From Burkholderiaceae bacterium (lineage in GTDB: Bacteria > Pseudomonadota > Gammaproteobacteria > Burkholderiales > Burkholderiaceae_D): a stretch of 46,004 bases of DNA. The stretch is taken from contig JAKOOD010000396.1 in NCBI GenBank assembly GCA_022701635.1, positions 1 to 46,004 on the forward strand, in the 5' to 3' direction. Numbering within the stretch: the first letter of the stretch is position 1; each line of letters opens with the position of its first letter. The notes beneath the pieces were generated by a model. That model saw nothing but the letters and a program-made list of their open reading frames with translations, did not search any database and had not been told where the DNA came from. This document shows, piece after piece, positions 2,588-36,938 of this stretch. Both the position numbers and the translations under genes were made by a program.

Positions 2588-3958
2588 TTAACCCATCATG
2601 GCCAGGGTGGCGTCGAACAGGGCGTTCGCCACCGACATCACCTTCATGTTGGCCTGGTACATATTCTGGTATTCGACCAGGTTCACGGCTTCTTCGTCCT
2701 GGTTGACGCCGCTCGTCGACTGCCAGTCGGCGTCGGCCTGGTCGCGCATCGACTGGGCGGTGGTCAGCGCGGTCTTGTTCTGCTGGCTTTGCACGGCCAG
2801 CTTGCCGACCAGCTGGGTGTCGGCGTCGCTGATCAGGACCGAGCCGAGGCCGGTCACCGTGATCGTCTGGTTCTTGATGTCGACCAGCTTCTGCAGGTTG
2901 CCGGTGTCGCCGGCGGTGCCGTCGCCCGAGAACGCCAGGTCGGCGGTCTGGAAACCGTCGGCCACCTGCAGCATGTTCGAGGTATTGCCCGGCGTGTAGA
3001 CGAACATCGGCTTGCCCCGGGTGCCGTCCATCGCGTAGCCCGCCGCCAGCTGGCCGTTGACCTTGTCGGCGACCTGCTTCGCGATGTCGGCCACGCCCTG
3101 CTGCAGCGGCTTCAGGGTGTCCGTCACATAGGTCGACAGGCCGCCCAGCTGGCCGCCGGCCTTGGTCGGGTCCAGCGCGAACGAGGTGCCGGCGAATTCG
3201 AGGCTGAAGGTCTGGTCGAGGCCGCCGCCCACGCTCAGCGTGCCGGCGACGCCGCCCAGCACCAGCGACTGGCCCGACTTCAGCGAGACGTTGCGGGTGC
3301 CGTCCGGCTGGTCGCTGACTTCCAGCGCCAGCTGGCCGGCCAGGCTGTCGATCGCCTGGTCGCGCGTGTCGATCAGGCCCGAGGCATTGGTGCCGCTGGC
3401 ATTCGCGTTGGCGATCTGCGTGTTCAGCGAGGCGATCGTGGCGATCGCGCTGTTGGCCGAGTCGACCACGGCGCTGCGCTGCTGGCGCACCGATTGCATC
3501 TGGGCGTTGTAGACGTTGTTCAGGCTGTTGAAGCGCTGGGCCAGCAGCGTGCCGGTGGTGACCACCTGCTGGCGCAGCGGGGTCGAGGTCGGATCGACGC
3601 CGGCCACCGCGTTCAGGGCGGCGAAGAAGCTGTCGATCCCGCTCGACAGGTTGGATTGGTCGTCGCCCATGACCTGTTCCAGCTGGGTCATGTAGGGCTG
3701 GGTCTGGGAGCGCTCGCCGACTTCCGAATTGCTGCGCCAGAGCTGCTGGGTCTTATAGTTGTCTGAAAAACGCAGCAGCGAGCTCACGCGCACGCCGTTG
3801 CCGGCCTGGTTGGCGCCGGCGGAAGGCCCCGCCGCCGTCAGCAGCGCGGACTGGCGCGTATAACCCTTGGTCTGCAGGTTGGCGATGTTCTGGCTGCTGG
3901 CGGACAGCGCCAGCTGCGATGCGAGGGCGCCGGACAGCGCGTTGTTCAGGATGCTCAT
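2588..3958 (-). CDS. flgK: FlgK, hook-associated protein 1
   Basis: FlgK is the first hook-filament junction protein. The N-terminus (MSILNNALSGALASQLALSA, then QNIANLQTKGYTRQ) carries the rod/hook N-domain with the ANxxTxGYxRQ-type motif. The C-terminus (EEAVNLVEYQNMYQANMKVMSVANALFDATLAM) is the classic terminal helix. At 456 residues it is shorter than FlgK of primary systems (about 550-650). The difference is in the central domains, since both ends are intact. Compact FlgK is typical of lateral/Flag-2 systems. It lies between flgJ (45-base gap) and flgL. Confidence 0.96.
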   Translation of the reverse strand: MSILNNALSGALASQLALSASSQNIANLQTKGYTRQSALLTAAGPSAGANQAGNGVRVSSLLRFSDNYKTQQLWRSNSEVGERSQTQPYMTQLEQVMGDDQSNLSSGIDSFFAALNAVAGVDPTSTPLRQQVVTTGTLLAQRFNSLNNVYNAQMQSVRQQRSAVVDSANSAIATIASLNTQIANANASGTNASGLIDTRDQAIDSLAGQLALEVSDQPDGTRNVSLKSGQSLVLGGVAGTLSVGGGLDQTFSLEFAGTSFALDPTKAGGQLGGLSTYVTDTLKPLQQGVADIAKQVADKVNGQLAAGYAMDGTRGKPMFVYTPGNTSNMLQVADGFQTADLAFSGDGTAGDTGNLQKLVDIKNQTITVTGLGSVLISDADTQLVGKLAVQSQQNKTALTTAQSMRDQADADWQSTSGVNQDEEAVNLVEYQNMYQANMKVMSVANALFDATLAMMG

Positions 3959-4003: not shown

Positions 4004-4360
4004 TCAGCCAGCTTTATTAAGTCCTTGCGGCAACAATTGCTTCAAAATGGCATCGGCGACGCCAAAGGCGCGCTGGTTGGCCAGGTTCCCGGCCAGCATG
4101 TTGTCGACCATGTCGGTCATGTCCTGGTTGACCTTGTTCTTGGCCGCGCTGTCTTCCGGGGCGATGGTGCGCTGGTTCTCGCGCATCTGGTGCAGCATGT
4201 GCGAGATGAAGAAGCTCTCGAATTCGACCGCGGCCTTGGTGGCCTTCGCCACGTAGGCCGGATCGGGCGCCTGGACGGCGTCGGCGGCCGGCGCGACCGC
4301 ATCGGCGGTCCCGGCCTGTTCCGGATGGAGCGGCTTGAGCGGGTTGAGGTTGTTCAGCAT
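4004..4360 (-). CDS. flgJ: FlgJ rod-cap protein, scaffold domain only
   Basis: This 118-residue protein has only the rod-binding domain of FlgJ: K-A-A-V-E-F-E-S-F-F-I-S-H-M-L near residue 45 and the terminal ANQRAFGVADAILKQLL. The peptidoglycan hydrolase domain that makes enteric FlgJ about 310 residues is absent. The reading frame ends at an ordinary stop with no hydrolase remnant downstream, so this is a single-domain form and not a truncation. Its start overlaps the flgI stop (ATGA). The protein probably caps the growing rod. The missing activity is likely supplied by the glucosaminidase at 11395-12132. Confidence 0.93.
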   Translation of the reverse strand: MLNNLNPLKPLHPEQAGTADAVAPAADAVQAPDPAYVAKATKAAVEFESFFISHMLHQMRENQRTIAPEDSAAKNKVNQDMTDMVDNMLAGNLANQRAFGVADAILKQLLPQGLNKAG

Positions 4361-5544
4361 CAGATCACCACCAGTTCGCCTTCGATCGCGCCGGCCTGGT
4401 CGAGCGCCTGCAGGATCGCCATGATGTCGTCGGGCGACGCCCCCAGGCTGTTGACCACGTCGATGATGGTCTGCAGGCGCGCACCGGCCGGCCAGTGGAA
4501 CATCTGGCCCGAACCGCGGTCGACCGAGATCTTCGACTGCGGGGTCACCGCGGTCTGGCCGTTCGACAGCGGGCCCGGCTGGCTGACCGCCGAGCTTTCC
4601 GAGATCACGACCTTGAGGGCGCCGTGGGTGACGGCGGCCGATTTCACGCGCAGGCCGTCCGAGATCACCACGGTGCCGGTACGCGAGTTGAACACCACCT
4701 TCGGCGTCTCGGCGCCGGCTTCCACCAGCATGTTTTCCAGCTTGGCGACGAAGGCCACGCGCTCGGTCGGGTTGCTTGGGGCGACCACTTCGACGCTGGT
4801 GCCGTCGGCGGTGGTGGCGACGTCGCCGAAGCGGCGGTTGATCGTATTCACGACGTTGGTCGCGGTGTCGAAATTCGGATGGCGCAGGCGCAGCATGACT
4901 TGCGGGCGGGTTGAGAAGTCGGTCGGGATCTCGCGCTCGATCTGGGCGCCGTTCGGGATGCGGCCGCCGGTCGGCGTGTTCACCGTCACCGAGGAACCGC
5001 TCTTGCCCGAGGCCGCCAGGCCGCCGACCACCACGTTGCCCTGCGCCAGCGCATAGACTTCGTTGTCGGCCGCGCGCAGCTGGGTCAGCAGCAGGGTACC
5101 GCCGCGCAGGCTCTTGGCGTCGCCCAGCGACGACACCGTGATGTCGATCGACTGGCCGCGGCGGTAGCCCGGCGGGAACACGGCGGACACCATCACCGCC
5201 GCCACGTTCTTGTTCTTGGCATCCTCGCCCTGCGGCAGCTTGACGCCGAACTGCTTGAGCATGTTGACCACCGACTGGCTCGCGTACTTGACCTGGGTCG
5301 AGTCGCCGCTGCCGTTCAGGCCGACGACCAGGCCGTAGCCCACCAGCGGGTTTTCGCGGACGCCTTCGACGCTGACCAGGTTACGCAGCGGCTGGGTGCG
5401 CGGCATGGCCGGCTCCACCTGGGCCGCGGTCTTCGGTATGGCCGGCGCCGCCATGGCCACGGACGCGGCGGACAGCGAGAGGCTGGCCAGTACGGCCAGG
5501 GAAACGATACGGATCAGTGAAGCAGGGCGTGCGAATGGGGTCAT
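4360..5544 (-). CDS. flgI: FlgI, flagellar P-ring protein
   Basis: This 394-residue P-ring subunit is the periplasmic bushing around the rod at the peptidoglycan layer. A Sec signal peptide spans about residues 1-33 (basic start, hydrophobic core, A-x-A end). It is followed by the family core: [28 protein letters not shown], then MLKQFGV and [14 protein letters not shown]. It ends with [25 protein letters not shown], the conserved FlgI C-terminus. Length is normal. It starts 7 bases after the flgH stop and its own stop overlaps flgJ. Confidence 0.97.
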
Positions 5545-5551
5545 GTCGTGC

Positions 5552-6217
5552 TCAGAACGGCATCAGGGGGCCGGTGAAGAAGCGGGTCAGCCAGCCGGGG
5601 CTGTTGGCGTCGGCCAGCGAGCCTTGGCCGGAATAGGCGATGCGGGCATTCGCCACGCGCAGCGAGGACACCTGGTTTTCCGAATCGATGTCGGCGGCGC
5701 GCAGGTAGCCCTTCACGCGCAGGAATTCCTCGCCCTGGTTCAGCTGCAGGCGCTTTTCGCCGGCCACGCGCAGCAGGCCGTTCGGCAGCACTTCCTGCAC
5801 GATCACGGTGACCGCGCCGGTCAGCGCGTTCTGCTGGGTGCTGGTGGCGTCGCCCTGGAAGCTGCGGTCGGCGCTGGCGTCGATCGCGGTGCGGCCGAAG
5901 GTCTTGCCGAGCGCGCCGAGCGGGGCCACCGAGACCGACGAGCCCTTGCTGAAGCTGGTGCCGGCCTTCTTGCTGGCCTGGGTGGTTTCCTGCAGCAGGA
6001 TGGTGACCACGTCGCCGATGCGGAAGGCGCGCGCGTCCGAGGTCAGCGACACGGTGTCGGCCGAGAACACGCCGCCGGACATGCCGGCGCGCGCCGCGCC
6101 GGCCTTGGGCAGGGCGAGGGCGTCGTCGACCGGGGCCGGGGTACGCAGCGGCACGTTCGAGGCGCAACCGGTGAGCAGCAGGATGGCCGCTGCTGCGGCG
6201 GCATGCAGGCGGACCAT
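5552..6217 (-). CDS. flgH: FlgH, flagellar L-ring lipoprotein
   Basis: This 221-residue protein forms the L-ring in the outer membrane. It has a lipoprotein signal peptide with lipobox L-T-G-C, lipidated Cys about residue 18. Family motifs include [18 protein letters not shown], SQPFxGDA-like [19 protein letters not shown] and [31 protein letters not shown], followed by [10 protein letters not shown]. It lies 2 bases after the flgG stop. Confidence 0.97.
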
Positions 6218-6219
6218 GA

Positions 6220-7005
6220 TCAGCGCGCCGCCTGCGACAGGTATTGCAGCATGTTGTCGGCAGCCGACAGCACCTTGGTGTTCATCTCGTAGGTGCGCTG
6301 GGCGGCGATCATGTCGACCATCTCTTCCACCACCTGCACGTTCGAGCCTTCCAGCGCGCCCTGCTTCAGGGTGCCGATGCCGGCGGTGCCGGGCTGGCCC
6401 TGGTTCGGGTTGCCGCTGGCGGCGGTTTCCTGGAACAGGTTCTCGCCCATCGCCTGCAGGCCGGCCGGGTTGACGAAGGTGGTCAGGGTCAGCTGGCCCA
6501 GTTCGGTCGGGGCGGTGCTGCCCGGCACCGCGGCGCTGACCATGCCGTTGGCGCCGATGGTGAGCGACAGCGCGTTGTTGGGCACGGTGATCTGCGGCAC
6601 CAGGGGCAGGCCCTGGGCGTTGACCAGCACGCCGTTGGCGTCGACCTGCAGCTGGCCGGCGCGGGTGTAGGCGGCGGTGCCGTCCGGACGGCGCACCTCG
6701 AGGAAGCCGTTGCCCGAGATGGCGACGTCGAGCGGCTGGCTGGTGGTCTGGATGCTGCCGTTGGTGAAGATCTTCTGGGTGCCGACGACGTGCACGCCGT
6801 TACCCAGCTGGACGCCGTTGGACACGGTGTTGTCCGCGACCTGGGCGCCCGGCTGGGCGTCGATCTGGTAGAACAGATCTTCGAACACGACGCGGTCGCG
6901 CTTGAAGCCGGTCGTGTTCACGTTGGCCAGGTTGTTGGCGATGGCCTGCAGCTTCGCATCCTGGGCTTGCACGCCGGTCTTGCTGATCAACATTGCTGGA
7001 TTCAT
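6220..7005 (-). CDS. flgG: FlgG, distal rod protein
   Basis: This 261-residue distal rod subunit begins with the rod-protein helix (AMLISKTGVQAQDAKLQAIA, then NNLANVNTTGFKRDR). The internal features are FlgG-specific: VQLGNGVHVVGTQKIFTNGS, PLDVAISGNGFLEVRRPDG and YTRAGQLQVDANG. It ends in the rod C-terminus (QVVEEMVDMIAAQRTYEMN). Length is standard. It is separated from flgF by 128 bases holding two palindromic repeats, which is unusual because the rest of this operon is tightly packed. Confidence 0.97.
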   Translation of the reverse strand: MNPAMLISKTGVQAQDAKLQAIANNLANVNTTGFKRDRVVFEDLFYQIDAQPGAQVADNTVSNGVQLGNGVHVVGTQKIFTNGSIQTTSQPLDVAISGNGFLEVRRPDGTAAYTRAGQLQVDANGVLVNAQGLPLVPQITVPNNALSLTIGANGMVSAAVPGSTAPTELGQLTLTTFVNPAGLQAMGENLFQETAASGNPNQGQPGTAGIGTLKQGALEGSNVQVVEEMVDMIAAQRTYEMNTKVLSAADNMLQYLSQAAR

Positions 7006-7023
7006 GGAATTCTCTCTTTATAC

Positions 7024-7066
7024 ATGGGGTCAGAGCCCGGTTTTCCCGGGTGGGCTCTGACCCCAT
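7024..7066. repeat. REP-like palindrome, copy 1
   Basis: Two 15-base arms (7024-7038 and 7052-7066) are perfect inverted repeats around a 13-base centre. The arm motif is a-t-g-g-g-g-t-c-a-g-a-g-c-c-c. The structure matches REP/BIME-type elements that are mobilised by REP-associated tyrosine transposases in many proteobacteria. No such transposase gene is in the window. Confidence 0.8.
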
Positions 7067-7080
7067 CTGATTAGTATTAC

Positions 7081-7122
7081 ATGGGGTCAGAGCCCGGTTT
7101 TAAGGGTGGGCTCTGACCTTAT
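7081..7122. repeat. REP-like palindrome, copy 2 (partly decayed arm)
   Basis: The left arm (7081-7095) is identical to that of copy 1. The right arm (7108-7122) ends in ccttat where copy 1 has ccccat, giving two mismatches. It stands in the same orientation 14 bases after copy 1, so the pair forms a tandem doublet inside the flg operon. Confidence 0.8.
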
Positions 7123-7133
7123 CTGACTATGGT

Positions 7134-7862
7134 TCAAGCGCCGATCAGCTTGTTACCGGCTTCATTCATCTTGTCGCTCGCCTGGAACAGCTTCATCTGG
7201 ATCTCGAAGCTGCGGTTCAGGCTCATGGTGGCGACCATTTCCTCGACTGCCGACACGTTGCTGCCTTCCAGCGCACGCGAACGCAGTTTCACGTTGGGGT
7301 CGGTGGCCAGGGGGGCGCCGTCGCGGGCGACGATCAGGCCGGCCTCGTTCTTGGTCAGTTCCGTGCCTTCGGCGTTCACCAGGCGCAGCTTGTCGATCAC
7401 CTGCATCTGTTTCGCGCCTTCGGTCAGCACCGAGATGGTGCCGTCGGTGCCGATCTCGACCGCGGTGTGCGGGGGCAGGGTGATCGGGCCGCCTTCGCCC
7501 ATCAGCGGGTGACCGTGCACCGACAGCGCGCCTTCGGCGCTCATCTCGATCTCGCCCGAGCGGGTATAGGCTTCGCCGTCGCCGTACTGCACGGCGAGCC
7601 AGCCCTTGCCGCCGATCGCCACGTCGAGCGGGCGGCCGGTCTCGCGCACGCTGCCGGCGCGGGTCGAGAGGGTGTCGGCCTGCATGTTCGTCATCTGCAC
7701 GTCGTCGTAGCCGTAGCCGCCGCTGGGCTTGGCGTGGCCGGCGACTTCCATGCTGGCGCGAAAGCCGGCGGTGTCCAGGTTGGCCAGGTTGTTGGCGTGG
7801 ACCTGCTGGGCGCGCATCAGGCGGTCGGCGCCGGAAGCGGCGGTGAAGATCAGTTTATCCAT
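7134..7862 (-). CDS. flgF: FlgF, proximal rod protein
   Basis: This 242-residue proximal rod protein has the N-terminal helix MDKLIFTAASGADRLMRAQQ with VHANNLANLDTAGFRAS. It then has PLDVAIGGKGWLAVQ(Y)GDGEAYTRSGE, the FlgF version of the rod core, and the C-terminal helix SAVEEMVATMSLNRSFEIQM. Length is standard. It follows flgE by 29 bases and precedes the repeat pair. Confidence 0.96.
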   Translation of the reverse strand: MDKLIFTAASGADRLMRAQQVHANNLANLDTAGFRASMEVAGHAKPSGGYGYDDVQMTNMQADTLSTRAGSVRETGRPLDVAIGGKGWLAVQYGDGEAYTRSGEIEMSAEGALSVHGHPLMGEGGPITLPPHTAVEIGTDGTISVLTEGAKQMQVIDKLRLVNAEGTELTKNEAGLIVARDGAPLATDPNVKLRSRALEGSNVSAVEEMVATMSLNRSFEIQMKLFQASDKMNEAGNKLIGA

Positions 7863-7891
7863 GTCGGCTCAGTGTTCGATCGGTGTCCGGA

Positions 7892-9070
7892 TTACAGGGC
7901 CTGCATCAGGGCCTGCATCATCTGGCTTTCGGTGGTCAGGACCTTGGAGTTGGCCTGGTAGTTGCGCTGCGACGTCATCAGGCCCACCAGTTCCGAGGTG
8001 ATGTCGACGTTCGAGCCTTCCAGCGCGCCGGTGTTGAGCTTGCCCGCCAGGCCGACGCCCGGGACGTTGTACAGGGCCGCGCCCGAGCCGGCGTTGGCGG
8101 TCCAGCTGGTGCCGCTGATCGCCTGCAGCCCGCCTTCGTTGGCGAAGTTGGCGATGGCCACGGTGCCGACCACTTGCGACTGGTCGTTGCTGTACTTGGC
8201 GACCAGCGAGCCGTCGCCGGCCAGTTCGACGCCGACGAAGGCGCCCGAGGCATAGCCGTCGCTGCGGTTGGTGGTGGTGGTGGCGTCGCCGGCGAAGCGG
8301 GTGGTGCCGGTGTAGTCGAACTTGACGCTGCCTCCGGCCGCGCCGCCCTGTGCCGGGATGTTGATGGTGTTGTTGGTAACGCCGGTCAGCTTGCCGGTGG
8401 AGTCGAAGGTCAATTGTCCCGGGGTTGCACTGACCGCACCGCCGTCCAGCGAGTAGTAGACGTTGACGGTGTTGTCGTTCTGCTTGGAGAAATACTGCGA
8501 CATGGTGTGCTGGGTGCCCAGCGAGTCGTACACGACCGATTGCTTGACCATGTTGTAGGTGTTCGGGTCGTCCTTGCTGAAGCCGGTCTTGTTGCTCCAG
8601 TCGGCCGACAGGTTGCCGACGAAGGCGACGCTGGTGGTGGCGACGGCCGGGATCTGGCCGGTCGGCACCTGGATGTCGCCCATCGCGCCGAGGGTGCCGT
8701 TGACGGCCGGGCCGTAGCCCTGCACCTTCTTGCCGTCGCTGTCGATCAGGTAGCCCTTGGTGTCGGTCGAGAAGATGCCGACGCGGCTGTAGGTCATGCC
8801 GCCCTGCGGATCGCGGCTGACGAAGAAGCCGCGGCCGTCGATGGCGGCGTCGAGGCCGCGGCCGGTGGTGGTGGTGCTGCCGTTCTGGCTGATGTTCTGG
8901 GTGACCGAGCCGATCTCGGTGCCGTTGGCCTTGCTGCCGGCCATCACGGTGGCGAAGTTGGCGCGGCCGGCCTTGAAGCCGTAGGTGGCGGCGTTGGCGA
9001 TGTTGTGCGAAACGGTTTCCAGCTGCTCGTTGATGGCCTGGATGCCGGACAGTGCGATGTCGAAGCTCAT
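7892..9070 (-). CDS. flgE: FlgE, flagellar hook protein
   Basis: This 392-residue hook subunit makes the universal joint between rod and filament. The N-terminus (MSFDIALSGIQAINEQLE, then VSHNIANAATYGFKAGRANF) and the C-terminus (TSELVGLMTSQRNYQANSKVL) are the conserved hook ends. The middle contains GRGFFVSRDPQGGMTYSR and GYLIDSDGKKVQGYGP, both typical of FlgE. Length is close to the enteric protein. It follows flgD, which encodes its assembly cap. Confidence 0.97.
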   Translation of the reverse strand: MSFDIALSGIQAINEQLETVSHNIANAATYGFKAGRANFATVMAGSKANGTEIGSVTQNISQNGSTTTTGRGLDAAIDGRGFFVSRDPQGGMTYSRVGIFSTDTKGYLIDSDGKKVQGYGPAVNGTLGAMGDIQVPTGQIPAVATTSVAFVGNLSADWSNKTGFSKDDPNTYNMVKQSVVYDSLGTQHTMSQYFSKQNDNTVNVYYSLDGGAVSATPGQLTFDSTGKLTGVTNNTINIPAQGGAAGGSVKFDYTGTTRFAGDATTTTNRSDGYASGAFVGVELAGDGSLVAKYSNDQSQVVGTVAIANFANEGGLQAISGTSWTANAGSGAALYNVPGVGLAGKLNTGALEGSNVDITSELVGLMTSQRNYQANSKVLTTESQMMQALMQAL

Positions 9071-9114
9071 GTCGATTCCTTGATATTTTTAATGCGGTAG
9101 AGGAGGAAGGGCGC

Positions 9115-9786
9115 TCAGGAGCCCGTCTTGCCGTTGAATCCCGTGACGGTCGAGGGATCGACCTCGCCAATGCCCGCCACTTGCAATACGACGCCGGTCC
9201 CGGTGACGCGCACGCTGTTCAGGCGTGCCGCCACTTCGACCTGCGGGGCGCTGCCGTCGGACGGCTGCGCCTGGATGGAATAGGTGCCCGGCGCCAGGCC
9301 GAGCGCGTCCGGATCGATGGTGAAGCTTTGCTCGCCCGAACCGTGGGCGGGCAGCGCCACGGTATGCTGCTGGCCGTCGATGCCGGTCAGCACCAGGTTG
9401 GTGGCGCTGCTGGCGCCGAGCAGGTGGATGCTGCCGTTGATCTTGGCGCCGTCCACTTTGACGTGGTCGGTCACCACGGTCACGTCGGAACCGACCTGGC
9501 CGCCCATCGCCAGCGTCTGCAGGCTCTGCAGGATGCTGGCGTTGGCGGTGGTCATGGTCGACAGGTTCTGCAGCGCCTCGGTCTGCGACAGCTGCGACAG
9601 CTGGTTGACGTAGGTGGTCGGGTCCTGCGGCTCGAGCGGATCCTGGTTCTGGATCTGCGCGACCAGCAGCTTGGTGAACATGTCGCGGTTTGCCGAGGTG
9701 CTGGCCTGGGGCGCGACGGCGCCGCTGCCGGCCGCGGTGGTGTTGTTGCCCAACGGGTTGTTGGTGGTGGAAGTCGTGGTTACCAT
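9115..9786 (-). CDS. flgD: FlgD, hook-capping protein
   Basis: FlgD caps the growing hook and is discarded later. This 223-residue protein has the diagnostic N-terminal motif (MFTKLLVAQIQNQDPLEPQDPTTYV, then QLSQLSQTEALQNL) at about residues 35-80. A beta-sandwich follows, built around an LTGIDGQQ...YSIQAQPSDG region. It lies between flgC (5-base gap) and flgE (44-base gap), the usual order. Confidence 0.96.
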   Translation of the reverse strand: MVTTTSTTNNPLGNNTTAAGSGAVAPQASTSANRDMFTKLLVAQIQNQDPLEPQDPTTYVNQLSQLSQTEALQNLSTMTTANASILQSLQTLAMGGQVGSDVTVVTDHVKVDGAKINGSIHLLGASSATNLVLTGIDGQQHTVALPAHGSGEQSFTIDPDALGLAPGTYSIQAQPSDGSAPQVEVAARLNSVRVTGTGVVLQVAGIGEVDPSTVTGFNGKTGS

Positions 9787-9791
9787 CTCGA

Positions 9792-10196
9792 TCAGCCTTC
9801 GCCCAGTTTCAGCAGCGACTGCTGCATCGATTTGATCCGGCCCAGCACCTCGACGTTGGTCTCGAATGCGCGCGAGGCGGACATCATGTCGGCCATTTCG
9901 GCCACTTCGTTGACGTTGGCGTAATACACCATGCCGTCGGCATCCGCCTTCGGATTGTCCGGCTCGTGCACGCGGCGCAGCGGCTCGCTGCTCTGGACCA
10001 CGTCGAGCACCTGCACGCCGCCGCCGGCCTGGCCTTCGACCATGGCGGCGAACACCGGCTTGCGCGCGCGGTAGGCTTCCGCTTCCGAGCCGGCCACGGC
10101 GTTGGCGTTGGCCAGGTTGCTGGCGATCGTGTTGAGGCGCACCGATTGCGCCGTCATCGCCGAACCGGCGATATTGGAGATGTCCTTGAAGCCCAT
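9792..10196 (-). CDS. flgC: FlgC, proximal rod protein
   Basis: This 134-residue rod subunit starts with MGFKDISNIAGSAMTAQ and RLNTIASNLANANAVAGSEA, and includes the Y-R-A-R-K-P-V-F motif. It ends with YANVNEVAEMADMMSASRAFETNVEVL, the FlgC C-terminal helix. Length is standard. It is 25 bases downstream of flgB. Confidence 0.96.
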   Translation of the reverse strand: MGFKDISNIAGSAMTAQSVRLNTIASNLANANAVAGSEAEAYRARKPVFAAMVEGQAGGGVQVLDVVQSSEPLRRVHEPDNPKADADGMVYYANVNEVAEMADMMSASRAFETNVEVLGRIKSMQQSLLKLGEG

Positions 10197-10221
10197 GTTG
10201 CGTATCCTTTGTCGGCCGGGG

Positions 10222-10581
10222 TTACTGGCCGTTGATGGCCTTGGCCAGACCGCGCAGCTGCATGTTCACGAAGGTCAGGCTGGTCTGGAAATCGGAAGCG
10301 TTCTGCGAAAACGCGGCCTGCTCGACACCGATCTCGACGGTATTGCCGTCGGCGCTCGGATGGAAGGGCACGCGGTACAGTGGGTCGCCTTCGCCCAGGC
10401 CCATCTCGCCATTCTCGGAATCGATGCGATCCTGCAGCATCGCGCCGAAGTCGACGTCGCGGGCGGTGAAGCCGGGCGTGCTTTCATTGGCGATGTTCGC
10501 CGCCAGCACTTTAGTGCGCTCCGCGCGTACCTGCAGCGCATCCGCGTGCACCCCGAGTGCATCCTTGAAATTAAACGTCAT
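10222..10581 (-). CDS. flgB: FlgB, proximal rod protein
   Basis: This 119-residue rod subunit is the first gene of the minus-strand flg operon. The ATG at 10581 (MTFNFKDALGVHADALQVRA) is chosen because it follows a GGAGG ribosome site and matches the FlgB family start. The frame is open further upstream, but the extra 33 residues would cross the intergenic region toward flgA. Motifs are VLAANIANESTPGFTARDVDF and the C-terminal SDFQTSLTFVNMQLRGL. It diverges from flgA with 77 bases between the start codons, where the operon promoter must lie. Confidence 0.95.
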   Translation of the reverse strand: MTFNFKDALGVHADALQVRAERTKVLAANIANESTPGFTARDVDFGAMLQDRIDSENGEMGLGEGDPLYRVPFHPSADGNTVEIGVEQAAFSQNASDFQTSLTFVNMQLRGLAKAINGQ

Positions 10582-10658
10582 GGTCCGGAACCTCCGTTGT
10601 CCTGCAATGCAATGTGATTGGTTAAAATCGGATTTCTTTTTACTGCCGCTATTCTCTA

Positions 10659-11363
10659 ATGATTGCTTTCTGTAAGGCAACCCTTGTCACGACGACACTT
10701 GTGCTGGTTTCAGGTCTCACAATTGCTGCTCAGCAACCTTTATCGATACAAATCGAACAAGCCGCCCGTGCCGAATTGGAAAGACAAATGGCGGCGTCGG
10801 GATTGACCGAACCGCAGGTCGAGGTGGCCGTCGTGACCACCCGCGCGGCGCCGGCATGCGCCCAGAATGTCGCCATCGAGGCCCTGGATACCCGTTCTCC
10901 CCTGCGGATGCGCTTCCTGGCGCGTTGCAACGACACGCCCGGATGGCGGTACGAGTACGTGGTGCGCGCGCGCCTGACGGCCATGGTGGCGGTCGCCGCG
11001 GCCCCGGTTGCCGCCAACGAGGCATTGACCGATGCACAAGTCACGATCGAGCGCCGTGATGTTTCCAACATTGCCGATCCGATCACGACTCCTGAAGATG
11101 CTGTCGGACAAATGTCACGCCGGATGTTGCGCCCAGGAGACATTTTGCGTGGCGGCCAGCTCAGCAGCCCTGTACTGGTCAAGCGCGGCGACGCCGTGAC
11201 CATGATCGCGCGCCGCGACGGCATCGAAGTCAGCAGCGCCGGCGAGGCGCTGGATGCCGGCGCGCGCGGCGCCATGGTGCGTGTACGGAATGCAAACAGC
11301 GGGCAGGTGCTGCGCATGCGGGTGGCCGGTCCTGGGGTGGTCGAACCGGTCGGCAACCAATAG
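10659..11363 (+). CDS. flgA: FlgA, P-ring assembly chaperone
   Basis: This 234-residue periplasmic chaperone is needed for FlgI polymerisation. A signal peptide covers about residues 1-24 (hydrophobic LVTTTLVLVSGLTIA, then AQQ). The C-terminal half is an SAF-type domain with RMLRPGDILRGGQL, VKRGDAVTMIARRDGIEVSSAGEALD and V-R-V-R-N-A-N-S-G-Q-V-L, the characteristic FlgA ending. It stands alone on the plus strand, divergent from flgB and convergent with the glucosaminidase gene 31 bases away. Confidence 0.95.
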   Translation: MIAFCKATLVTTTLVLVSGLTIAAQQPLSIQIEQAARAELERQMAASGLTEPQVEVAVVTTRAAPACAQNVAIEALDTRSPLRMRFLARCNDTPGWRYEYVVRARLTAMVAVAAAPVAANEALTDAQVTIERRDVSNIADPITTPEDAVGQMSRRMLRPGDILRGGQLSSPVLVKRGDAVTMIARRDGIEVSSAGEALDAGARGAMVRVRNANSGQVLRMRVAGPGVVEPVGNQ

Positions 11364-11394
11364 ACAGGGCGTTCGCGAAGGGTGTGCGGAGGCG

Positions 11395-12132
11395 TCAGCC
11401 GCCGACGCCCTGCAGCTTGCCGGCCAGGCGCGACAGCTTGGCCGCGTACGCCGGGTCGGTCGCGTAGCCGCCCTTGGCCAGTCCGGATGCGAACGCACGG
11501 GCATCGCTGCCGGTGCCGAGCGCGCCGCGGAAACGCGGATTATCGACCAGCATCTGCGCATAGTCGCGGAAGGCGCTGGCCTGGTCCGGATAAGCGCGGA
11601 AGCGCGCACTGGTCTTGACCGCCGCGCCGCCCACGTATTCGGTGGTGCTGTTGTCGGCGACGTCGCCTTTCCAGCTGTTGCCGGCCTTGATGCCGAACAG
11701 GTTGTGGGTCGAACTGCCGTCGGCATTCTTCAGCGGGCGCCGGCCCCAGCCCGATTCCAGCGCGGCGTGCGCCGACACCAGTTCCGGCGCCACGCCCAGC
11801 TTGTCGGCCGCTTCGCGCGCCCACGGCGCGATACTCTCGAGGAAGGCCTGCTGGTCGGGCGAGGCGCTGCCGTCGCCGTCACCGACGATGGCATTCGCGG
11901 CGCCGGCTTCGCTGGCGCGCGCGGCCCACACACGGCCTTCCGCGCTCAGGGTGGCGCCGCTGGTCGAGTCGCCGCCGCCGTTCTGGATGAAGTCGGCGAC
12001 TTCGCCCTGCACCTGGCCGAACACGCCGCCGAAGTTGGCCCCACCGCTGCCGTTGCCGATGGCAGCGGCAGGGCGGGTGGCGGCGGTCGGCGCCAGCGCC
12101 GGGATCGCGGTCGTGAATTCAGCGTGGCGCAT
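11395..12132 (-). CDS. Stand-alone flagellar glucosaminidase (FlgJ C-terminal type, GH73-like)
   Basis: This 245-residue protein carries the peptidoglycan hydrolase domain normally fused to FlgJ. From about residue 90 it reads QQAFLESIAPWAREAADKLG, then SAHAALESGWG (predicted catalytic Glu about 126). It continues with HNLFGIKAG, TTEYVGG, FRAYPDQASAFRDYAQ and KGGYATDPAYAAKL, all GH73/FlgJ signatures. The N-terminal 90 residues are low-complexity and show no Sec signal, so export may be through the flagellar type III apparatus. The ATG at 12132 follows GAGG; an in-frame start at 12150 is possible. It overlaps flgN by 14 bases. Its natural role would be to open peptidoglycan for the rod capped by the single-domain FlgJ. 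Confidence 0.88.
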   Translation of the reverse strand: MRHAEFTTAIPALAPTAATRPAAAIGNGSGGANFGGVFGQVQGEVADFIQNGGGDSTSGATLSAEGRVWAARASEAGAANAIVGDGDGSASPDQQAFLESIAPWAREAADKLGVAPELVSAHAALESGWGRRPLKNADGSSTHNLFGIKAGNSWKGDVADNSTTEYVGGAAVKTSARFRAYPDQASAFRDYAQMLVDNPRFRGALGTGSDARAFASGLAKGGYATDPAYAAKLSRLAGKLQGVGG

Positions 12133-12547
12133 AGGTCTGGTCCTCGCCATGCATCAGGCGCTGCATCACCGAATGCTGTTCCGCCATCAGGTTGGTATTG
12201 CGGGTGGTGGCGCGCTTGCAGTCGCGCACCAGTTGCTCCAGCTGGTCCCAGGCGGCGCTGGCGCCGCCGCGCTGGGCGTCGGGCAGGCTGCTGAACAGCT
12301 GGTCCATGCCGGCCTGCTGGCCGAACAGGGCGCGCACCAGCTGCACGCGCTGCTGGCGGCGCTGTTCCATGGTGTCCAGCTGCGGCGTCAGTTCGCCGGC
12401 CAGCGTCGCCAGTTCGGCGCCGCGGTGGCGCAGCGCGGCCTGGAACTGGCGTTCCAGTACGTCGCGGATGCTGGTGCAGGAGCGGATGTCGTCCTGGATG
12501 CCGTCCAGCAGGCGCGTCAGCGCCTGGTCGCGGGTCATGCGGCTCAT
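12119..12547 (-). CDS. flgN: FlgN, chaperone for FlgK and FlgL
   Basis: This 142-residue, mostly helical protein is a cytoplasmic export chaperone for the hook-filament junction proteins. It has FlgN-like features: a long amphipathic helix (ALTRLLDGIQDDIRSCTSIR), a middle helix (RHRGAELATLAGELTPQLDTM) and a C-terminal helix with KRATTRNTNLMAEQHSVMQRLM. The ATG at 12547 is chosen because it lies just after the flgM stop; the frame extends slightly upstream. It directly follows flgM, the usual pairing. Confidence 0.85.
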   Translation of the reverse strand: MSRMTRDQALTRLLDGIQDDIRSCTSIRDVLERQFQAALRHRGAELATLAGELTPQLDTMEQRRQQRVQLVRALFGQQAGMDQLFSSLPDAQRGGASAAWDQLEQLVRDCKRATTRNTNLMAEQHSVMQRLMHGEDQTYAPR

Positions 12548-12551
12548 TGCG

Positions 12552-12833
12552 TTACCCCTGGCTGCCATGGAAGCGCTGGATCAGGCCGGCAAGGCGGCCG
12601 GCGTCGAACGGCAGCTGGCCCTTGGCCAGGGCGTCGCGCAGCTCGGCCACGCGGGCGGCGTCGAAGTCGGGCAGGGCGCGCAGTGCGCCCTGGGCCGGTT
12701 GCAGCACCGCCGATTCGAGCGGAGACGATGATTCGGCCGCCGGGGCCGACACCGCCACCGAAGCGGATGCGGCAGCGGCGCCGGCTTGCGGCGTGATGGA
12801 GATGGAAGGAGTCGAGACGCCTGTGATCTTCAT
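12552..12833 (-). CDS. flgM: FlgM, anti-sigma-28 factor
   Basis: This 93-residue protein holds FliA inactive until it is exported through the finished hook-basal body. It begins MKITGVSTPSIS, followed by an Ala/Ser-rich disordered stretch. The C-terminal sigma-binding helices are visible (FDAARVAELRDALAKGQLPFD, then RLAGLIQRFHG). The start at 12833 is preferred over an upstream in-frame start because it gives the standard M-K-I-x FlgM N-terminus. It sits between motB and flgN, downstream of fliA and motAB. Confidence 0.9.
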   Translation of the reverse strand: MKITGVSTPSISITPQAGAAAASASVAVSAPAAESSSPLESAVLQPAQGALRALPDFDAARVAELRDALAKGQLPFDAGRLAGLIQRFHGSQG

Positions 12834-12862: not shown

Positions 12863-13825
12863 TCATGGTTTCTTCGCCATTTGGCTGCGCAGGTCCTGGA
12901 GCGCTTCTTCGCCCGGTTTGCTGACCGTGACGTCCTGCGTCAGCGATTCGGTCGGGCCCGGCGTGCCGAACATCGCCTTCACGCTGGCAGCCTGGGCACT
13001 GGTCAGGATCAGGAGTTCGATGCGGCGGTTCGCCGCCGCCGCCGGCTTGGCGACATCGAGTGGCGCGCGGTCGGCCATGCCGACCACTTGCAGCACGCTT
13101 TCGGTGCGCATCCCGCCGCTCAGCAGTTCACCGCGCGCAGCCAGTGCGCGGTTGACCGACAGGCTGGTATTCGAATAGCCCATCGGACCTTTATAAGTGT
13201 ACTGCAAGGAATCAGTGTGGCCCACAATCAACATCTGATTTTCCATTTTTTCGAACAATGGCGCCATCGCACGCAACAGTTTTGCGAATTTCGTGGTTGG
13301 CAACGGGCTGCCGCGCTCGAACATGCCCTGGCGGTCGGTGTCGTGCAACATCACGCGCAAGCCGTTCGGCGTGACCACCGTGGCAAGATTCGATGACAGG
13401 CCGGCATCGACGCTCATCTGCTGCAGCGCCCGCGCCAGGGCCGCCAGTTCGGAGGCCGATTCGTACTTGGTGCGGGCGGCGTCCTGCTTGCCCGCATTCG
13501 GCCCTTCGCTGCCTCCGTTACTCTTTGGCATCTCGAAGCGTTCGATCATGCTGCCGCTCGGGTTGCTGGCAAGCTCGGGCTTGCTGCCGCTGCCTTCGAT
13601 CATGCCGCTGGCCATGTTGTCGCGCACGATTTTCTTGGCCTTTGCCGCATCTTGCGAAGCGATCAGCCACAGCACCAGGAACAGTGCCATCAAGGCCATG
13701 CAAAAGTCGGCGAACGCCACTTTCCAGGCGCCGCCGTGCTCGTCGTCGTGGTGCTTGCCGCCGCCGCGCTTGACGATGGTTTCGCCGTGGTGATCGCCGC
13801 CGCCGCCTTTTTTATTTGCTTGCAC
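12863..13825 (-). CDS. motB: MotB/LafU-type stator protein
   Basis: This 320-residue stator subunit anchors to peptidoglycan. The single transmembrane helix (WKVAFADFCMALMALFLVLW, about 34-53) contains the proton-binding Asp at about 40. The periplasmic OmpA-like domain has QMLIVGHTDSLQY, LSVNRALAARGELLSGG and ANRRIELLI. The long basic, His- and Gly-rich N-terminus (residues 1-32) is cytoplasmic. The start codon is GTG, supported by a GGAG site 6 bases upstream. It follows motA by 11 bases and precedes flgM. Confidence 0.95.
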   Translation of the reverse strand: MQANKKGGGGDHHGETIVKRGGGKHHDDEHGGAWKVAFADFCMALMALFLVLWLIASQDAAKAKKIVRDNMASGMIEGSGSKPELASNPSGSMIERFEMPKSNGGSEGPNAGKQDAARTKYESASELAALARALQQMSVDAGLSSNLATVVTPNGLRVMLHDTDRQGMFERGSPLPTTKFAKLLRAMAPLFEKMENQMLIVGHTDSLQYTYKGPMGYSNTSLSVNRALAARGELLSGGMRTESVLQVVGMADRAPLDVAKPAAAANRRIELLILTSAQAASVKAMFGTPGPTESLTQDVTVSKPGEEALQDLRSQMAKKP

Positions 13826-13836
13826 TGGGGGCTCCG

Positions 13837-14727
13837 TTACGCTTTACGCTTGGCGCCGCCGGCGTCTTCGCCGTCGGCCATGGCGTTCAGCCAGGCTTCC
13901 AGCTGGGCGAAGCTGGGCTTGGTGTTCAGCTGGATCAGGCGGCGCCCGGCGTCGATCGCCAGCAGCGGCGGCTTGCCGGCCACGTGGGTCACCAGCACGA
14001 CCTTCACCGTTTCCATGGTCGAGGCTTCGGAATTGACCAGCTGCTTCATCATGCCGGAAATCGGATCCAGCACGCCGTAGCAGAAGAAAATGCCGATGAA
14101 GGTACCGACCATGGCCGCGCCGATGTGTTCCGCGATCTCGGCGGTCTCGGCGCCTTCGCCGACCGAGTTCATGGTGATCACGATGCCCAGCACCGCGGCC
14201 AGGATGCCGAAGCCCGGCATGCCCTCGGCGACCTTGTGCAGCGACTTGGCCGGCTGGCTCAGCTCTTCGTGGATGGCTTCCAGTTCCTGCTCGAGCACGC
14301 CTTCCAGTTCGTGGGCGTTGATCTTGCCCATCGCCATCAAGCGGAAGTTGTCGACGATGAAGGCGAGCAGTTTCGGCTCTTCCAGGATCAGCGGGTAGCG
14401 CTGGAACATCGGGCTTTCCTTGGGTGCCTCGACGTGGGCGTCGAGCGCCTTCAGGCCGCCGGCGGCGGTCTGCAGCAGTTCATACATCAGCAGCAGCAAC
14501 TGGCGCTGGAATTCCGAATCGTGCTTGTGCTTGCCCGCGACCTTTTTCATCTGGCCGAGCATCTCGATCAGCACGTGCTTCGGGTTGGCCAGCACCAGCG
14601 CCCCCAACGCGGCGCCGCAGATGACGATCAGTTCGTTGGGCTGCCAGATGGCGATGGCGGTGCCGCCCATCAGCATGTAGCCGCCGAACACGGTGCCCAG
14701 CACGATGAGAATGCCTAAGATTTGCAT
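13837..14727 (-). CDS. motA: MotA/LafT-type stator protein
   Basis: This 296-residue membrane protein forms the ion channel with MotB and drives FliG. Four hydrophobic segments lie at about residues 3-22, 33-52, 170-190 and 203-225. The cytoplasmic loop has the charged residues that contact FliG. Family motifs are GYMLMGG, ELIVICGAALGALVLANP, EGMPGFGILAAVLGIVITM and GTFIGIFFCYGVLDPISGMM. The sequence is of the proton MotA type, not PomA. It sits directly downstream of fliA, the lafS-lafT order of lateral systems. Confidence 0.95.
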   Translation of the reverse strand: MQILGILIVLGTVFGGYMLMGGTAIAIWQPNELIVICGAALGALVLANPKHVLIEMLGQMKKVAGKHKHDSEFQRQLLLLMYELLQTAAGGLKALDAHVEAPKESPMFQRYPLILEEPKLLAFIVDNFRLMAMGKINAHELEGVLEQELEAIHEELSQPAKSLHKVAEGMPGFGILAAVLGIVITMNSVGEGAETAEIAEHIGAAMVGTFIGIFFCYGVLDPISGMMKQLVNSEASTMETVKVVLVTHVAGKPPLLAIDAGRRLIQLNTKPSFAQLEAWLNAMADGEDAGGAKRKA

Positions 14728-14761: not shown

Positions 14762-15493
14762 TCAGGCCTGGGCCAGTGCGGCTTTCATCTTGGCCAGCGC
14801 GGTCTTGTTGAGCTGGCAGACGCGGGCATCGGACAGGTCGAGCACGGCGGCGATTTCCTTGTAGCTGAGCTCGAACTCATAAATCATCTGGATCACGCGC
14901 TGCTCGCGCTCGTTGAGGGCGGCCAGTGCGTGTTCCAGGCTGCGCCGCACCGCGTACTGCTCTTCTGGCCCCGGCGCATGGCTGGCGCGCTCGGTGCTTT
15001 CCTGGAGCACGTCGTCGAAGCTGAGCAGTTCCTCGGCGACGTCGTCGAGCAGGAACTGGCGCCACTCGTCCTGGCTGATGCCGAGCGCCTCGGCCGCTTC
15101 CTTGTCGTTCGGCTCGCGGCCGAGCTTGCGGGTGAGGGCGCGCACGGCGTCGCGCATCTTGTGGCTGTCCTGGCGCACGGCGCGTGGCCGCCAGTCCTGG
15201 CGCCGCAGCTCGTCGAGGATGGCGCCACGCACGCGCAGCGACGCGTAGCTGGCGAAGCCGGTGTCGGGCGTGCCGTAGCGGCGCAAGGCCTCGAGCAGGC
15301 CCATCAGCCCGATCTGTTCCATGTCTTCGCGTCCCATCGCACCGGAAACCTGCGAGTTCAGCTGGCGTGCGATGCGTTTCACCAGGGGCGCATAAGCGAC
15401 CAGGTGGCGCTGTTCGTCCTTCGCGCTCATCGCCGCGTGGTGGGCGGCACCGGCGTATTCGGTGCTGGCGTAGCTGTCGGCGTAGTCGGTCAT
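14762..15493 (-). CDS. fliA: FliA/LafS sigma-28 factor
   Basis: This 243-residue sigma factor directs transcription of late flagellar genes such as flagellin. Region 2 is visible (LVKRIARQLNSQVSGAMGRE, DMEQIGLMGLLEALRRYG, GFASYASLRVRGAILDELR). Region 3 follows (RDAVRALTRKLGREPNDKEAAEALGI). Region 4 has its helix-turn-helix (ALAALNEREQRVIQMIYEFE, then SYKEIAAVLDLSDARVCQL). The ATG at 15493 is chosen; a GTG at 15502 with a nearby GGGGA is also possible. It lies between fliL and motA and is balanced by flgM in the same run of genes. Confidence 0.95.
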   Translation of the reverse strand: MTDYADSYASTEYAGAAHHAAMSAKDEQRHLVAYAPLVKRIARQLNSQVSGAMGREDMEQIGLMGLLEALRRYGTPDTGFASYASLRVRGAILDELRRQDWRPRAVRQDSHKMRDAVRALTRKLGREPNDKEAAEALGISQDEWRQFLLDDVAEELLSFDDVLQESTERASHAPGPEEQYAVRRSLEHALAALNEREQRVIQMIYEFELSYKEIAAVLDLSDARVCQLNKTALAKMKAALAQA

Positions 15494-15515
15494 GTAACCC
15501 ACGATATCCCCGGTG

Positions 15516-28426: not shown

Positions 28427-29562
28427 GTGAAAGCAGCGGCGGCGACAAGACCGAAAAGGCCTCGGCCCAAAAGCTGAAAAAGGCGCGCGAGCAGGGGCAG
28501 GTGGTCCGCTCCAAGGACCTGGCCACGGCGGTCGGCATCCTGGCCAGCCTGAAGCTGTTCGTGTTCCTGCTGCCGGACTACCTGGAATCGTTCCGCGCGC
28601 TGTTCCGGCTGGTCTATGTACCGCTCGGCGCCGCGGGCTCGATCGAGAACGCGCTGTCGGTGGTGTGGGGCAGCGCCGCGGCGCTGCTGGTCAAGATGGT
28701 GCTGCCGCTGCTGGGCGTGCCGCTGGCGATCGTGGTGTCGAGCATGGTGCCGGGCGGCTTCGTGGTCTCGGGCAGCAACCTGATGCCGCGCTTCGACCGC
28801 TTCTCGCCGGTGAAGAACCTGGGCCAGCTGGCATCCGGCAAGCACTGGACCACCTTCGCCAGCTCGGTGGCGAAGGCGGCCCTGCTGGCGACGGTGCTGG
28901 TGCACGTGGTGCGCTCGGCCGGCGGCGCCTGGGTCGAGCTGCAGCGCATGCCGCTGAGCGACGCGCTGCTGCACGGCGCCGGCATGATGTTCGACGGCCT
29001 GATGTCGCTGGTCGCGGTGTTCCTGATCTTCGCCGTGATCGACGTGCCGCTGCAGGCCTTCCTGTTCGCGCGCGGCCAGCGCATGAGCAAGCAGGAAGTG
29101 AAGGAAGAGTACAAGAGCTCCGAGGGCAAGCCCGAGGTGAAAGGGCGCATCCGCCAGCTGCAGCAACAGCTGGCGCGGCGCAGCGTGAACAAGACCGTGC
29201 CGACGGCCGACGTGGTGATCGTCAACCCCGAGCACTACGCGGTGGCGCTGAAATACGATACGGACCGCGCCGAGGCGCCGTTCGTGGTGGCCAAGGGCGT
29301 CGACGAGATGGCCCTGTACATCCGCGCGGTGGCGGCCAAGCACAAGATCGAGACGGTCTCGCTGCCGCCGCTGGCGCGCGCCATCTACAACACCAGCCAG
29401 GTGCAGCAGCAGATTCCCGCCCAGTTGTACCAGGCGGTGTCGCAGGTGCTGAACTATGTGCTGCAATTGAATGCTTTCCGTGCAGGCCGGCGCCAGGCGC
29501 CCCCACGGTTCCCCAATGAAGTGGCCGTGCCGGCCCATTTGAGTGAGGTATCCGCTAAATGA
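28423..29562 (+). CDS. flhB: FlhB, export switch protein with NPEH autocleavage motif
   Basis: This 379-residue protein controls the substrate switch of the flagellar exporter. The start at 28423 (MSESSGGDKTEKASAQKLKK) has the family E-K-A-S/T-x-x-K-L-x-x-A-R-E-x-G-Q motif and overlaps fliR. Four transmembrane helices follow. The cytoplasmic domain has EVKEEYKSSEGKPEVKGRIR. The autocleavage site reads N-P-E-H at residues 268-271, where most FlhB have N-P-T-H. The Asn-Pro bond that is cut is intact. The C-terminal extension after about 345 is Arg- and Pro-containing and weakly conserved. Confidence 0.96.
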   Translation: MSESSGGDKTEKASAQKLKKAREQGQVVRSKDLATAVGILASLKLFVFLLPDYLESFRALFRLVYVPLGAAGSIENALSVVWGSAAALLVKMVLPLLGVPLAIVVSSMVPGGFVVSGSNLMPRFDRFSPVKNLGQLASGKHWTTFASSVAKAALLATVLVHVVRSAGGAWVELQRMPLSDALLHGAGMMFDGLMSLVAVFLIFAVIDVPLQAFLFARGQRMSKQEVKEEYKSSEGKPEVKGRIRQLQQQLARRSVNKTVPTADVVIVNPEHYAVALKYDTDRAEAPFVVAKGVDEMALYIRAVAAKHKIETVSLPPLARAIYNTSQVQQQIPAQLYQAVSQVLNYVLQLNAFRAGRRQAPPRFPNEVAVPAHLSEVSAK

Positions 29563-36177: not shown

Positions 36178-36188
36178 CGGGGAACAGC

Positions 36189-36917: not shown

Positions 36918-36938
36918 CCGCAATACGCCCCTTATTTC

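What the first reader, a model, noticed from the sequence alone, without database searches (positions are those of the whole stretch)
4004..12132. FlgJ split into a scaffold-only rod cap and a separate glucosaminidase
The protein at 4004-4360 has only the rod-binding domain. A separate 245-residue protein at 11395-12132 carries the GH73-like FlgJ hydrolase domain with its predicted catalytic Glu, overlapping flgN. The two are 7 kb apart in different operons. The enzyme has no Sec signal, so it may be exported by the flagellar system and recruited to the rod. Known split cases in alphaproteobacteria use an unrelated lytic transglycosylase.
Basis: partly seen in the sequence, partly recalled or inferred. 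Interest (0 to 1): 0.62.

Follow-up and report, generated by a model that had tools for sequence, protein, structure and literature searches.

The report
Flagellar wall-cutting enzyme as separate protein
In a soil-type bacterium with two flagellar systems, the second system appears to carry its rod cap and its cell-wall-cutting enzyme as two separate proteins instead of the usual single FlgJ, and the pair has stayed together in many relatives.

Summary
The 118-aa protein (4004-4360) has only a rod-binding domain. The 245-aa protein (11395-12132) has a FlgJ-type GH73 domain with both catalytic Glu, no Sec-like signal, and overlaps flgN by 14 nt. Main correction: this Massilia-like genome has two flagellar systems. 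The primary one keeps a normal 324-aa two-domain FlgJ on another contig; the split pair belongs to the second, lateral (Flag-2-like) system.

The pair is conserved. In one draw of 145 family genomes, the same 26 carry lateral FlgI and the standalone GH73. The layout recurs in Pseudoduganella, Pseudogulbenkiania and Iodobacter. Trees argue against simple breakage of one local FlgJ: E. coli Flag-2 in the same FlgI clade is also rod-only, and the enzyme groups with Neisseriales-type FlgJ, not with Massilia's own.

Best reading: a dedicated trans-acting glucosaminidase of the lateral flagellum, probably exported as an early type III substrate (conserved F-x-x-x-F/Y at residues 34-38). Export, recruitment by the rod cap and the motility role are inferred. 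Rod-only FlgJ plus a separate wall enzyme is a known kind; this GH73, apparently Sec-less version looks like a new variant.

The parts
4004..4360 (-). rod-only FlgJ (rod cap/scaffold) of the lateral system, 118 aa
   Evidence: PF10135 27.1 bits, FlgJ NCBIfam models E about 1e-11; between flgI and flgK in relatives
11395..12132 (-). standalone FlgJ-type GH73 glucosaminidase, 245 aa
   Evidence: PF01832 106.9 bits; AlphaFold model of the domain at high pLDDT, best PDB matches are FlgJ GH73 structures
11413..11829 (-). GH73 catalytic domain (residues 102-240)
11755..11757 (-). predicted catalytic Glu126 (ALESGWG), taken as counterpart of Salmonella E184
   Evidence: 50 of 50 sequences; Salmonella numbering from PMC8517470 passages
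11638..11640 (-). predicted second catalytic Glu165, taken as counterpart of Salmonella E223 (same spacing of 39)
   Evidence: 50 of 50 sequences
12019..12033 (-). F34-x-x-x-F38 motif at the start of a predicted helix 34-51; candidate type III gate recognition motif
   Evidence: F34 in 49 of 50, F/Y/L at 38 in 50 of 50; helix; FlgD motif FLTLL at residues 36-40 (PMC8983047 passages)
12119..12132 (.). 14-nt overlap of the flgN end with the GH73 start
   Evidence: conserved in relatives
12119..12568 (-). flgN
   Evidence: PF05130 42.9 bits
12552..12866 (-). flgM
   Evidence: TIGR03824 49 bits, over cut-off
12863..13825 (-). lafU/motB-type stator gene
   Evidence: best NCBIfam model is LafU, 200 bits, under its cut-off of 383
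13837..14727 (-). motA
   Evidence: 55% identical to E. coli Flag-2 motA
14762..15502 (-). fliA-type sigma factor (lateral)
   Evidence: TIGR02479 over cut-off
4360..5544 (-). flgI of the lateral system
   Evidence: 57% identical to E. coli Flag-2 FlgI against 46% for the genome's own primary FlgI; tree
2588..3958 (-). flgK
   Evidence: 39% identical to E. coli Flag-2 FlgK
10659..11363 (+). flgA, convergent with the GH73 gene
   Evidence: TIGR03170 and PF13144 over cut-off
29559..31652 (+). flhA of the lateral system
   Evidence: PF00771 792 bits; a second flhA match lies on contig C251
32709..33680 (-). flagellin of the lateral system
   Evidence: PF00669 and PF00700

Best explanation
The window holds a second, lateral (Flag-2-like) flagellar system whose rod cap and wall-cutting enzyme are two separate proteins. 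The 118-aa rod-only FlgJ caps the growing rod. The 245-aa GH73 enzyme is a dedicated N-acetylglucosaminidase made in the same cluster, its start overlapping the end of flgN. I infer that it is exported by the flagellum's own type III apparatus as an early substrate (N-terminal F-x-x-x-F/Y signal, no Sec signal), docks at the rod tip, probably on the rod-only FlgJ, and cuts the wall so that the rod can pass: the division of labour of two-domain FlgJ, carried out in trans. Shown: domains, conserved catalytic residues, purifying selection on the catalytic part, conserved linkage and co-occurrence with the lateral system, tree placement. Inferred: enzymatic activity, translational coupling, type III export, docking on the rod cap, requirement for lateral motility.
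For: Domains and two-system genome. Same arrangement in 21 of 24 other genus genomes; the three without it (G010, G016, G019) have one FlgI each, primary-type, 44-47% identical. In the same draw of 145 family genomes, 26 carry the standalone GH73 and the identical 26 carry lateral FlgI at E <= 1e-120, in every case on one contig, 6.5-7.3 kb apart start to start. Of 47 loci in the named-genome scan, 41 carry GH73 directly after flgN, including Pseudogulbenkiania and Iodobacter; a 14-nt overlap in 40 of those 41. Catalytic Glu126 and Glu165 in 50 of 50 sequences; dN/dS 0.13-0.31 in the catalytic part for five pairs. High-confidence GH73 fold, best matches FlgJ structures. F34 in 49 of 50 with F/Y/L at 38, close to the FlgD gate motif at 36-40 (PMC8983047, passages; the general pattern F-x-x-x-hydrophobic is recalled). 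Highest 10-residue hydrophobicity in the first 40 residues 1.54 over 61 sequences, against 2.42-2.67 for FlgA, FlgI and FlgH. Two-domain FlgJ itself joins these two functions in one protein.
Against: No experiment. E. coli Flag-2 has rod-only FlgJ and no GH73 annotated or matched in the 46 kb read, and none is annotated in the 28 kb read of the V. breoganii plasmid, so such a system may manage without its own GH73. The gene lies at the end of a run that starts with fliD and contains fliA, which suggests late expression, whereas rod penetration is early; promoter scans settled nothing. The conserved MRHA start is partly forced by the flgN overlap. L104 lacks the F of the motif and the overlap. 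The closest relative, L066, has an in-frame stop at codon 42. The hydrophobicity test is crude and no signal-peptide predictor was run. The rod-only FlgJ model was of low confidence and its fold search gave nothing at E <= 0.001.
Confidence: 0.7

Rival explanations
1. The standalone GH73 is flagellar but does not open the hole for the rod. It acts later, for example on the wall around stators or for filament growth, and the primary two-domain FlgJ, or another hydrolase, serves both flagella during rod passage.
For: Gene at the end of a run that starts with fliD and contains fliA, motA and lafU; E. coli Flag-2 and the V. breoganii plasmid system have no annotated GH73 in the stretch read; a full-length FlgJ is present in the genome.
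Against: Its closest kin are FlgJ catalytic domains, and rod-only FlgJ leaves exactly this function unfilled within the system. Co-occurrence with the lateral system is complete in the draw of 145 although each of those 26 genomes shows at least one further GH73 match.
Confidence: 0.18
2. Simple fission: an ancestral lateral two-domain FlgJ broke and its C-terminal half moved next to flgN.
For: Lateral FlgJ of Plesiomonas is 328 aa and listed as peptidoglycan hydrolase, most similar to V. parahaemolyticus LfgJ (PMC4481668, passages), so two-domain lateral FlgJ probably exists.
Against: The FlgI clade that holds the window, E. coli Flag-2 and V. breoganii is rod-only throughout (21 of 21 rows; the V. 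breoganii row is flagged as a long branch of unsure place); the GH73 domain groups with Neisseriales-type two-domain FlgJ. Vibrio, Aeromonas and Plesiomonas lateral systems were not knowingly in the FlgI tree, so this is not excluded.
Confidence: 0.2
3. A wall hydrolase that only happens to sit beside flagellar genes, with a housekeeping role.
For: GH73 enzymes outside flagella exist; three genus genomes carry an extra GH73 of 160-170 aa open frame without flagellar neighbours among my queries.
Against: In the draw of 145, 26 genomes have both the gene and lateral FlgI and 119 have neither at the thresholds used; the same slot in Oxalobacteraceae, Chromobacteriaceae and Iodobacter.
Confidence: 0.03

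Closest known systems
Two-domain FlgJ (Salmonella, E. coli and most beta/gamma-proteobacteria)
   Same: Rod-binding function plus a GH73 domain with the Glu184/Glu223 pair (PMC8517470, passages); the window's domain is closest to FlgJ structures
   Different: Here the two functions are on two polypeptides from separate gene runs about 7 kb apart, in the second system only
Rhodobacter sphaeroides Fla1: rod-only FlgJ + SltF
   Same: Rod-only FlgJ with a separate flagellar wall enzyme encoded among flagellar genes
   Different: SltF is a lytic transglycosylase with a signal sequence, exported by Sec (PMC7277832, passages); here a GH73 without a Sec-like stretch
Borrelia burgdorferi: single-domain FlgJ + LTase-Bb (BB0259)
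   Same: Single-domain FlgJ with a separate wall enzyme that binds it
   Different: SLT-type enzyme; the Borrelia GH73 protein BB0531 had no observed motility or shape phenotype when deleted (PMC8517470, passages)
E. coli Flag-2 secondary flagellar locus
   Same: Lateral-type system with a 99-aa rod-only FlgJ between flgI and flgK, and FlgI in the same clade
   Different: No GH73 annotated or matched in the cluster; a 309-aa protein without a Pfam match follows flgN instead
Thermotoga maritima GH73 (PDB 4qdn; I take it to be TM0633)
   Same: A GH73 crystal structure named flagellar protein FlgJ (136 residues in the entry); the T. maritima control genome matches both PF01832 and PF10135, so it may be another rod-only + separate GH73 case
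   Different: Distant sequence (25% identity); its gene context and flagellar role were not tested here. That 4qdn is TM0633 is recalled

Membership tests
FlgJ (TIGR02541, two-domain) | rod-binding and GH73 domains in one protein | tested here: not met
   Neither window protein has both; each scores under the TIGR02541 cut-off: 42.8 and 187.5 against 193. The C661 protein meets it with 330.4
Rod-binding (PF10135) | score over the curated cut-off | tested here: met
   27.1 bits against 25.1, narrow; the AlphaFold model was too weak to add support
GH73, FlgJ-type | PF01832 match and GH73 fold | tested here: met
   106.9 bits; Foldseek best 3vwo, 43% identity, TM-score 0.89 by target length
GH73, FlgJ-type | two catalytic Glu with FlgJ spacing | tested here: met
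   E126 and E165 in 50 of 50; spacing 39 as in Salmonella E184/E223 (numbers from PMC8517470 passages)
GH73, FlgJ-type | glucosaminidase activity on peptidoglycan | not testable with these tools
   needs a zymogram or muropeptide assay
SltF / LTase-Bb type flagellar lytic transglycosylase | SLT domain | tested here: not met
   only PF01832 matched at E <= 0.001
SltF / LTase-Bb type flagellar lytic transglycosylase | Sec signal at the N-terminus (SltF) | tested here: not met
   hydrophobicity scan only; no signal-peptide predictor
Lateral / Flag-2 flagellar system | gene content and order as in E. coli Flag-2, FlgI in its clade | tested here: met
   flgM-flgN stand in a different place than in E. 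coli
Lateral / Flag-2 flagellar system | lateral flagella made by cells | not testable with these tools
   needs microscopy
Early flagellar type III substrate | gate recognition motif with an N-terminal hydrophobic signal | tested here: inconclusive
   conserved F-x-x-x-F/Y at residues 34-38, similar in position to FlgD; export not shown

The most novel reading that the evidence does not exclude
The lateral flagellum of these betaproteobacteria secretes its own wall-cutting GH73 enzyme in trans through its type III channel as an independent early substrate, which the rod-only FlgJ cap then captures: a division of FlgJ's work in which hole-cutting can be supplied, timed and lost separately from rod capping, and which arose once when a Neisseriales-type FlgJ catalytic domain was added to a lineage already rod-only.
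Probability: 0.4. Interest if true: 0.62.

Novelty: new variant of a known kind. Interest (0 to 1): 0.48.

Why it matters
Two-domain FlgJ ties rod capping and wall cutting together, and the known separate flagellar enzymes that I found described are transglycosylases, SltF being exported by Sec. A conserved natural separation of the same two domains, beside an intact two-domain FlgJ in the same cell, gives a clean way to ask whether the two functions must be coupled, how a wall enzyme is aimed at the rod tip, and how two flagellar systems keep their enzymes apart. It also points to an open question for E. coli-type Flag-2 systems: which enzyme lets their rod through the wall.

Tried and rejected
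Rejected: chance or mis-annotation (conserved synteny); contamination as the source of the full-length FlgJ (its GH73 domain falls among primary FlgJ of the same genus); housekeeping role; the standalone domain as sister of Massilia's own primary FlgJ (AU p 0.0245, a moderate rejection).

Led nowhere: sigma-54 pattern scan at chance level (24 found, 26.5 expected) and sigma-28 scan with no match (both consensus patterns recalled); rod-only FlgJ model of mean pLDDT 65 with no PDB match at E <= 0.001 and no solved relative by sequence (one match, E 0.27). The E. coli 309-aa protein after flgN has no Pfam match and was not followed further.

Rows dropped or loosely labelled. Trees: identical rows once; L049, L062, L063 (small GH73 without flagellar neighbours), L124, L125 and L129 left out; both carry long-branch warnings, for the V. 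breoganii row L136; the AU test used 51 of the 137 rows, and there the bootstrap had not settled. L066 is counted as standalone although its ORF has a stop; only its domain downstream of the stop was used. 'Rod-only' means no GH73 match within 1.8 kb behind flgI: L181 was read (150 aa); for L185, L198 and L205 only ORFs of the other strand were printed. dN/dS was asked for eight pairs and ran for five, the others having been removed as duplicates. The unnamed and named sets overlap (L045 and L072, for example, appear to be the same contig), so their counts are not added.

Literature. Passages only of PMC4481668, PMC8517470, PMC8983047, PMC7277832, PMC4752226, PMC6913195, PMC10954123 and PMC5773237 (reference-list passages); term search without hits in PMC6993521. 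Nambu et al. 2006, on FlgJ domain plasticity, was not seen; it may discuss such cases. None of the papers listed (open-access library; searches list only 20 of 28, 12 of 435 and 20 of 31) showed, by title or start of abstract, a standalone GH73 in a lateral system.
Full report
Observation. Both genes are at the stated places on the minus strand. The 118-aa protein has a rod-binding domain just over the Pfam cut-off and no other Pfam match; the 245-aa protein has a strong GH73 domain and no rod-binding match. The flgN stop lies inside the GH73 start, a 14-nt overlap.

What the single window could not show. The genome (5.48 Mb, 724 contigs, 88% complete) has a second GH73 and a second rod-binding match, both in one 324-aa protein on contig C661, behind a second flgI, and a second flhA match. 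So there are two flagellar systems, and the primary one has an ordinary FlgJ. The window system resembles lateral/Flag-2 systems: the best NCBIfam model for its motB-type gene is LafU, though under cut-off, and its flg genes are closer to E. coli Flag-2 than to the genome's own primary set (FlgI 57% against 46%, FlgG 60% against 51%). E. coli Flag-2 has a 99-aa rod-only FlgJ in the same slot.

Conservation. Of 24 other genomes of the genus, 21 carry the standalone GH73 in the same slot. G016 and G019 have one GH73 match each, in open frames of 328 and 315 aa, and the second GH73 of G010 is a 160-aa frame without flagellar neighbours among my queries; all three have a single, primary-type FlgI. 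In a draw of 145 family genomes, 26 have the standalone protein, read as matches at E <= 2.3e-49 that begin at query residue 16 or before, with a gap to 8.8e-46 for the next match. Exactly the same 26 have lateral FlgI at E <= 1e-120. I checked full context in 13 of the 26 (own; G012; 11); the other 13 rest on both matches lying on one contig 6.5-7.3 kb apart. The named scan gave 47 loci: 41 with GH73 behind flgN (Massilia, Telluria, a 'Herbaspirillum' that falls among Massilia, Pseudoduganella, Pseudogulbenkiania, Iodobacter), rod-only FlgJ seen in 39 of the 41 (the other two are short contigs). The remaining six are two-domain FlgJ of Aquaspirillum and Gallionella, two Proteus FlgJ-like frames behind flgI, and two Bacillus proteins without flagellar neighbours among my queries. 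One more order member, G051, has the layout too. In a draw of 229 class genomes the only match running from the start of the standalone model was the window's own.

Enzyme. Glu126 and Glu165 are in all 50 sequences compared and 39 residues apart, as are Salmonella Glu184 and Glu223 (PMC8517470 passages). dN/dS for five pairs is 0.13-0.31 in the catalytic part and 0.36-0.72 in the N-terminal part. The AlphaFold domain is of high confidence from about residue 91, residues 1-39 are not; a helix is drawn at 34-51. The best structural and sequence matches are FlgJ GH73 structures.

Export. The first 40 residues hold no stretch as hydrophobic as the Sec signals of FlgA, FlgH and FlgI. Within the poorly conserved N-terminus, F34 stands in 49 of 50 sequences with F, Y or L at position 38, and I49 in 50 of 50. 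FlgD carries its gate recognition motif, FLTLL, at residues 36-40 (PMC8983047, passages; that the general pattern is F-x-x-x-hydrophobic is recalled). This fits an early type III substrate but shows no export. The conserved MRHA start is partly dictated by the overlap with flgN.

Origin. In a tree of 137 GH73 domains the 54 standalone rows form one clade (100/99), inside a group with Aquaspirillum FlgJ and the two-domain FlgJ of an unnamed family that I take for Chromobacteriaceae kin (100/94), away from Massilia's own FlgJ. In a reduced set of 51 rows, grouping with the Neisseriales-type rows has support 98/95 and grouping with the own-family primary FlgJ is rejected at p-AU 0.0245, which is moderate. 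In a FlgI tree of 63 rows the window, its relatives, E. coli Flag-2 and a V. breoganii plasmid form one clade (99/96), all rod-only; the V. breoganii row is a long branch of unsure place. The simplest story is a lateral system that was already rod-only and gained a FlgJ catalytic domain as a separate gene once, followed by vertical and horizontal spread. Lateral systems with two-domain FlgJ (Plesiomonas; PMC4481668, passages) were not knowingly in that tree, so loss followed by regain, or fission, remains possible.

Mechanism and doubts. The most likely role is to open the wall for the lateral rod in place of FlgJ's missing domain. Two facts pull the other way: the gene lies behind fliD and fliA in what looks like a late run, and E. 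coli Flag-2 seems to do without it. Activity, export, docking and need for motility are untested.

Standing. Rod-only FlgJ with a separate wall enzyme is known: SltF (PMC7277832, passages) and Borrelia LTase (PMC8517470, passages). The new parts are that the separate enzyme is FlgJ's own kind of domain, apparently without a Sec signal, tied to the lateral system, in cells that keep a normal FlgJ for the other flagellum. A Thermotoga GH73 named FlgJ (4qdn) may be a further separate GH73 case, which tempers the claim.

Noticed in passing
L066:10001-10738: The closest relative's standalone GH73 ('Herbaspirillum sp. SJZ107', 97% identical in the domain) has an in-frame stop at codon 42: a broken gene or a sequencing error.
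   Followed up: partly
L039:26787-27716: E. coli Flag-2 carries a 309-aa protein without a Pfam match directly after flgN, the slot that holds the GH73 in the betaproteobacteria.
   Followed up: partly
window 33796-38519: A protein that looks TPR-repeated (read by eye) and two glycosyltransferase-type genes lie next to the lateral flagellin, possibly for flagellin glycosylation.
   Followed up: no
G012:C1:1207791-1208816: A third FlgI, 39% identical, in one genus member: perhaps a third flagellar system.
   Followed up: no
L181, L185, L198, L205: Other class members whose flgI is not followed by a GH73 match within 1.8 kb; L181 has a 150-aa rod-only FlgJ, and its genome G551 is not among the GH73 matches listed.
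   Followed up: partly
L049, L062, L063: Extra GH73 proteins (open frames of 160-170 aa) without flagellar neighbours among my queries in three genus genomes.
   Followed up: no
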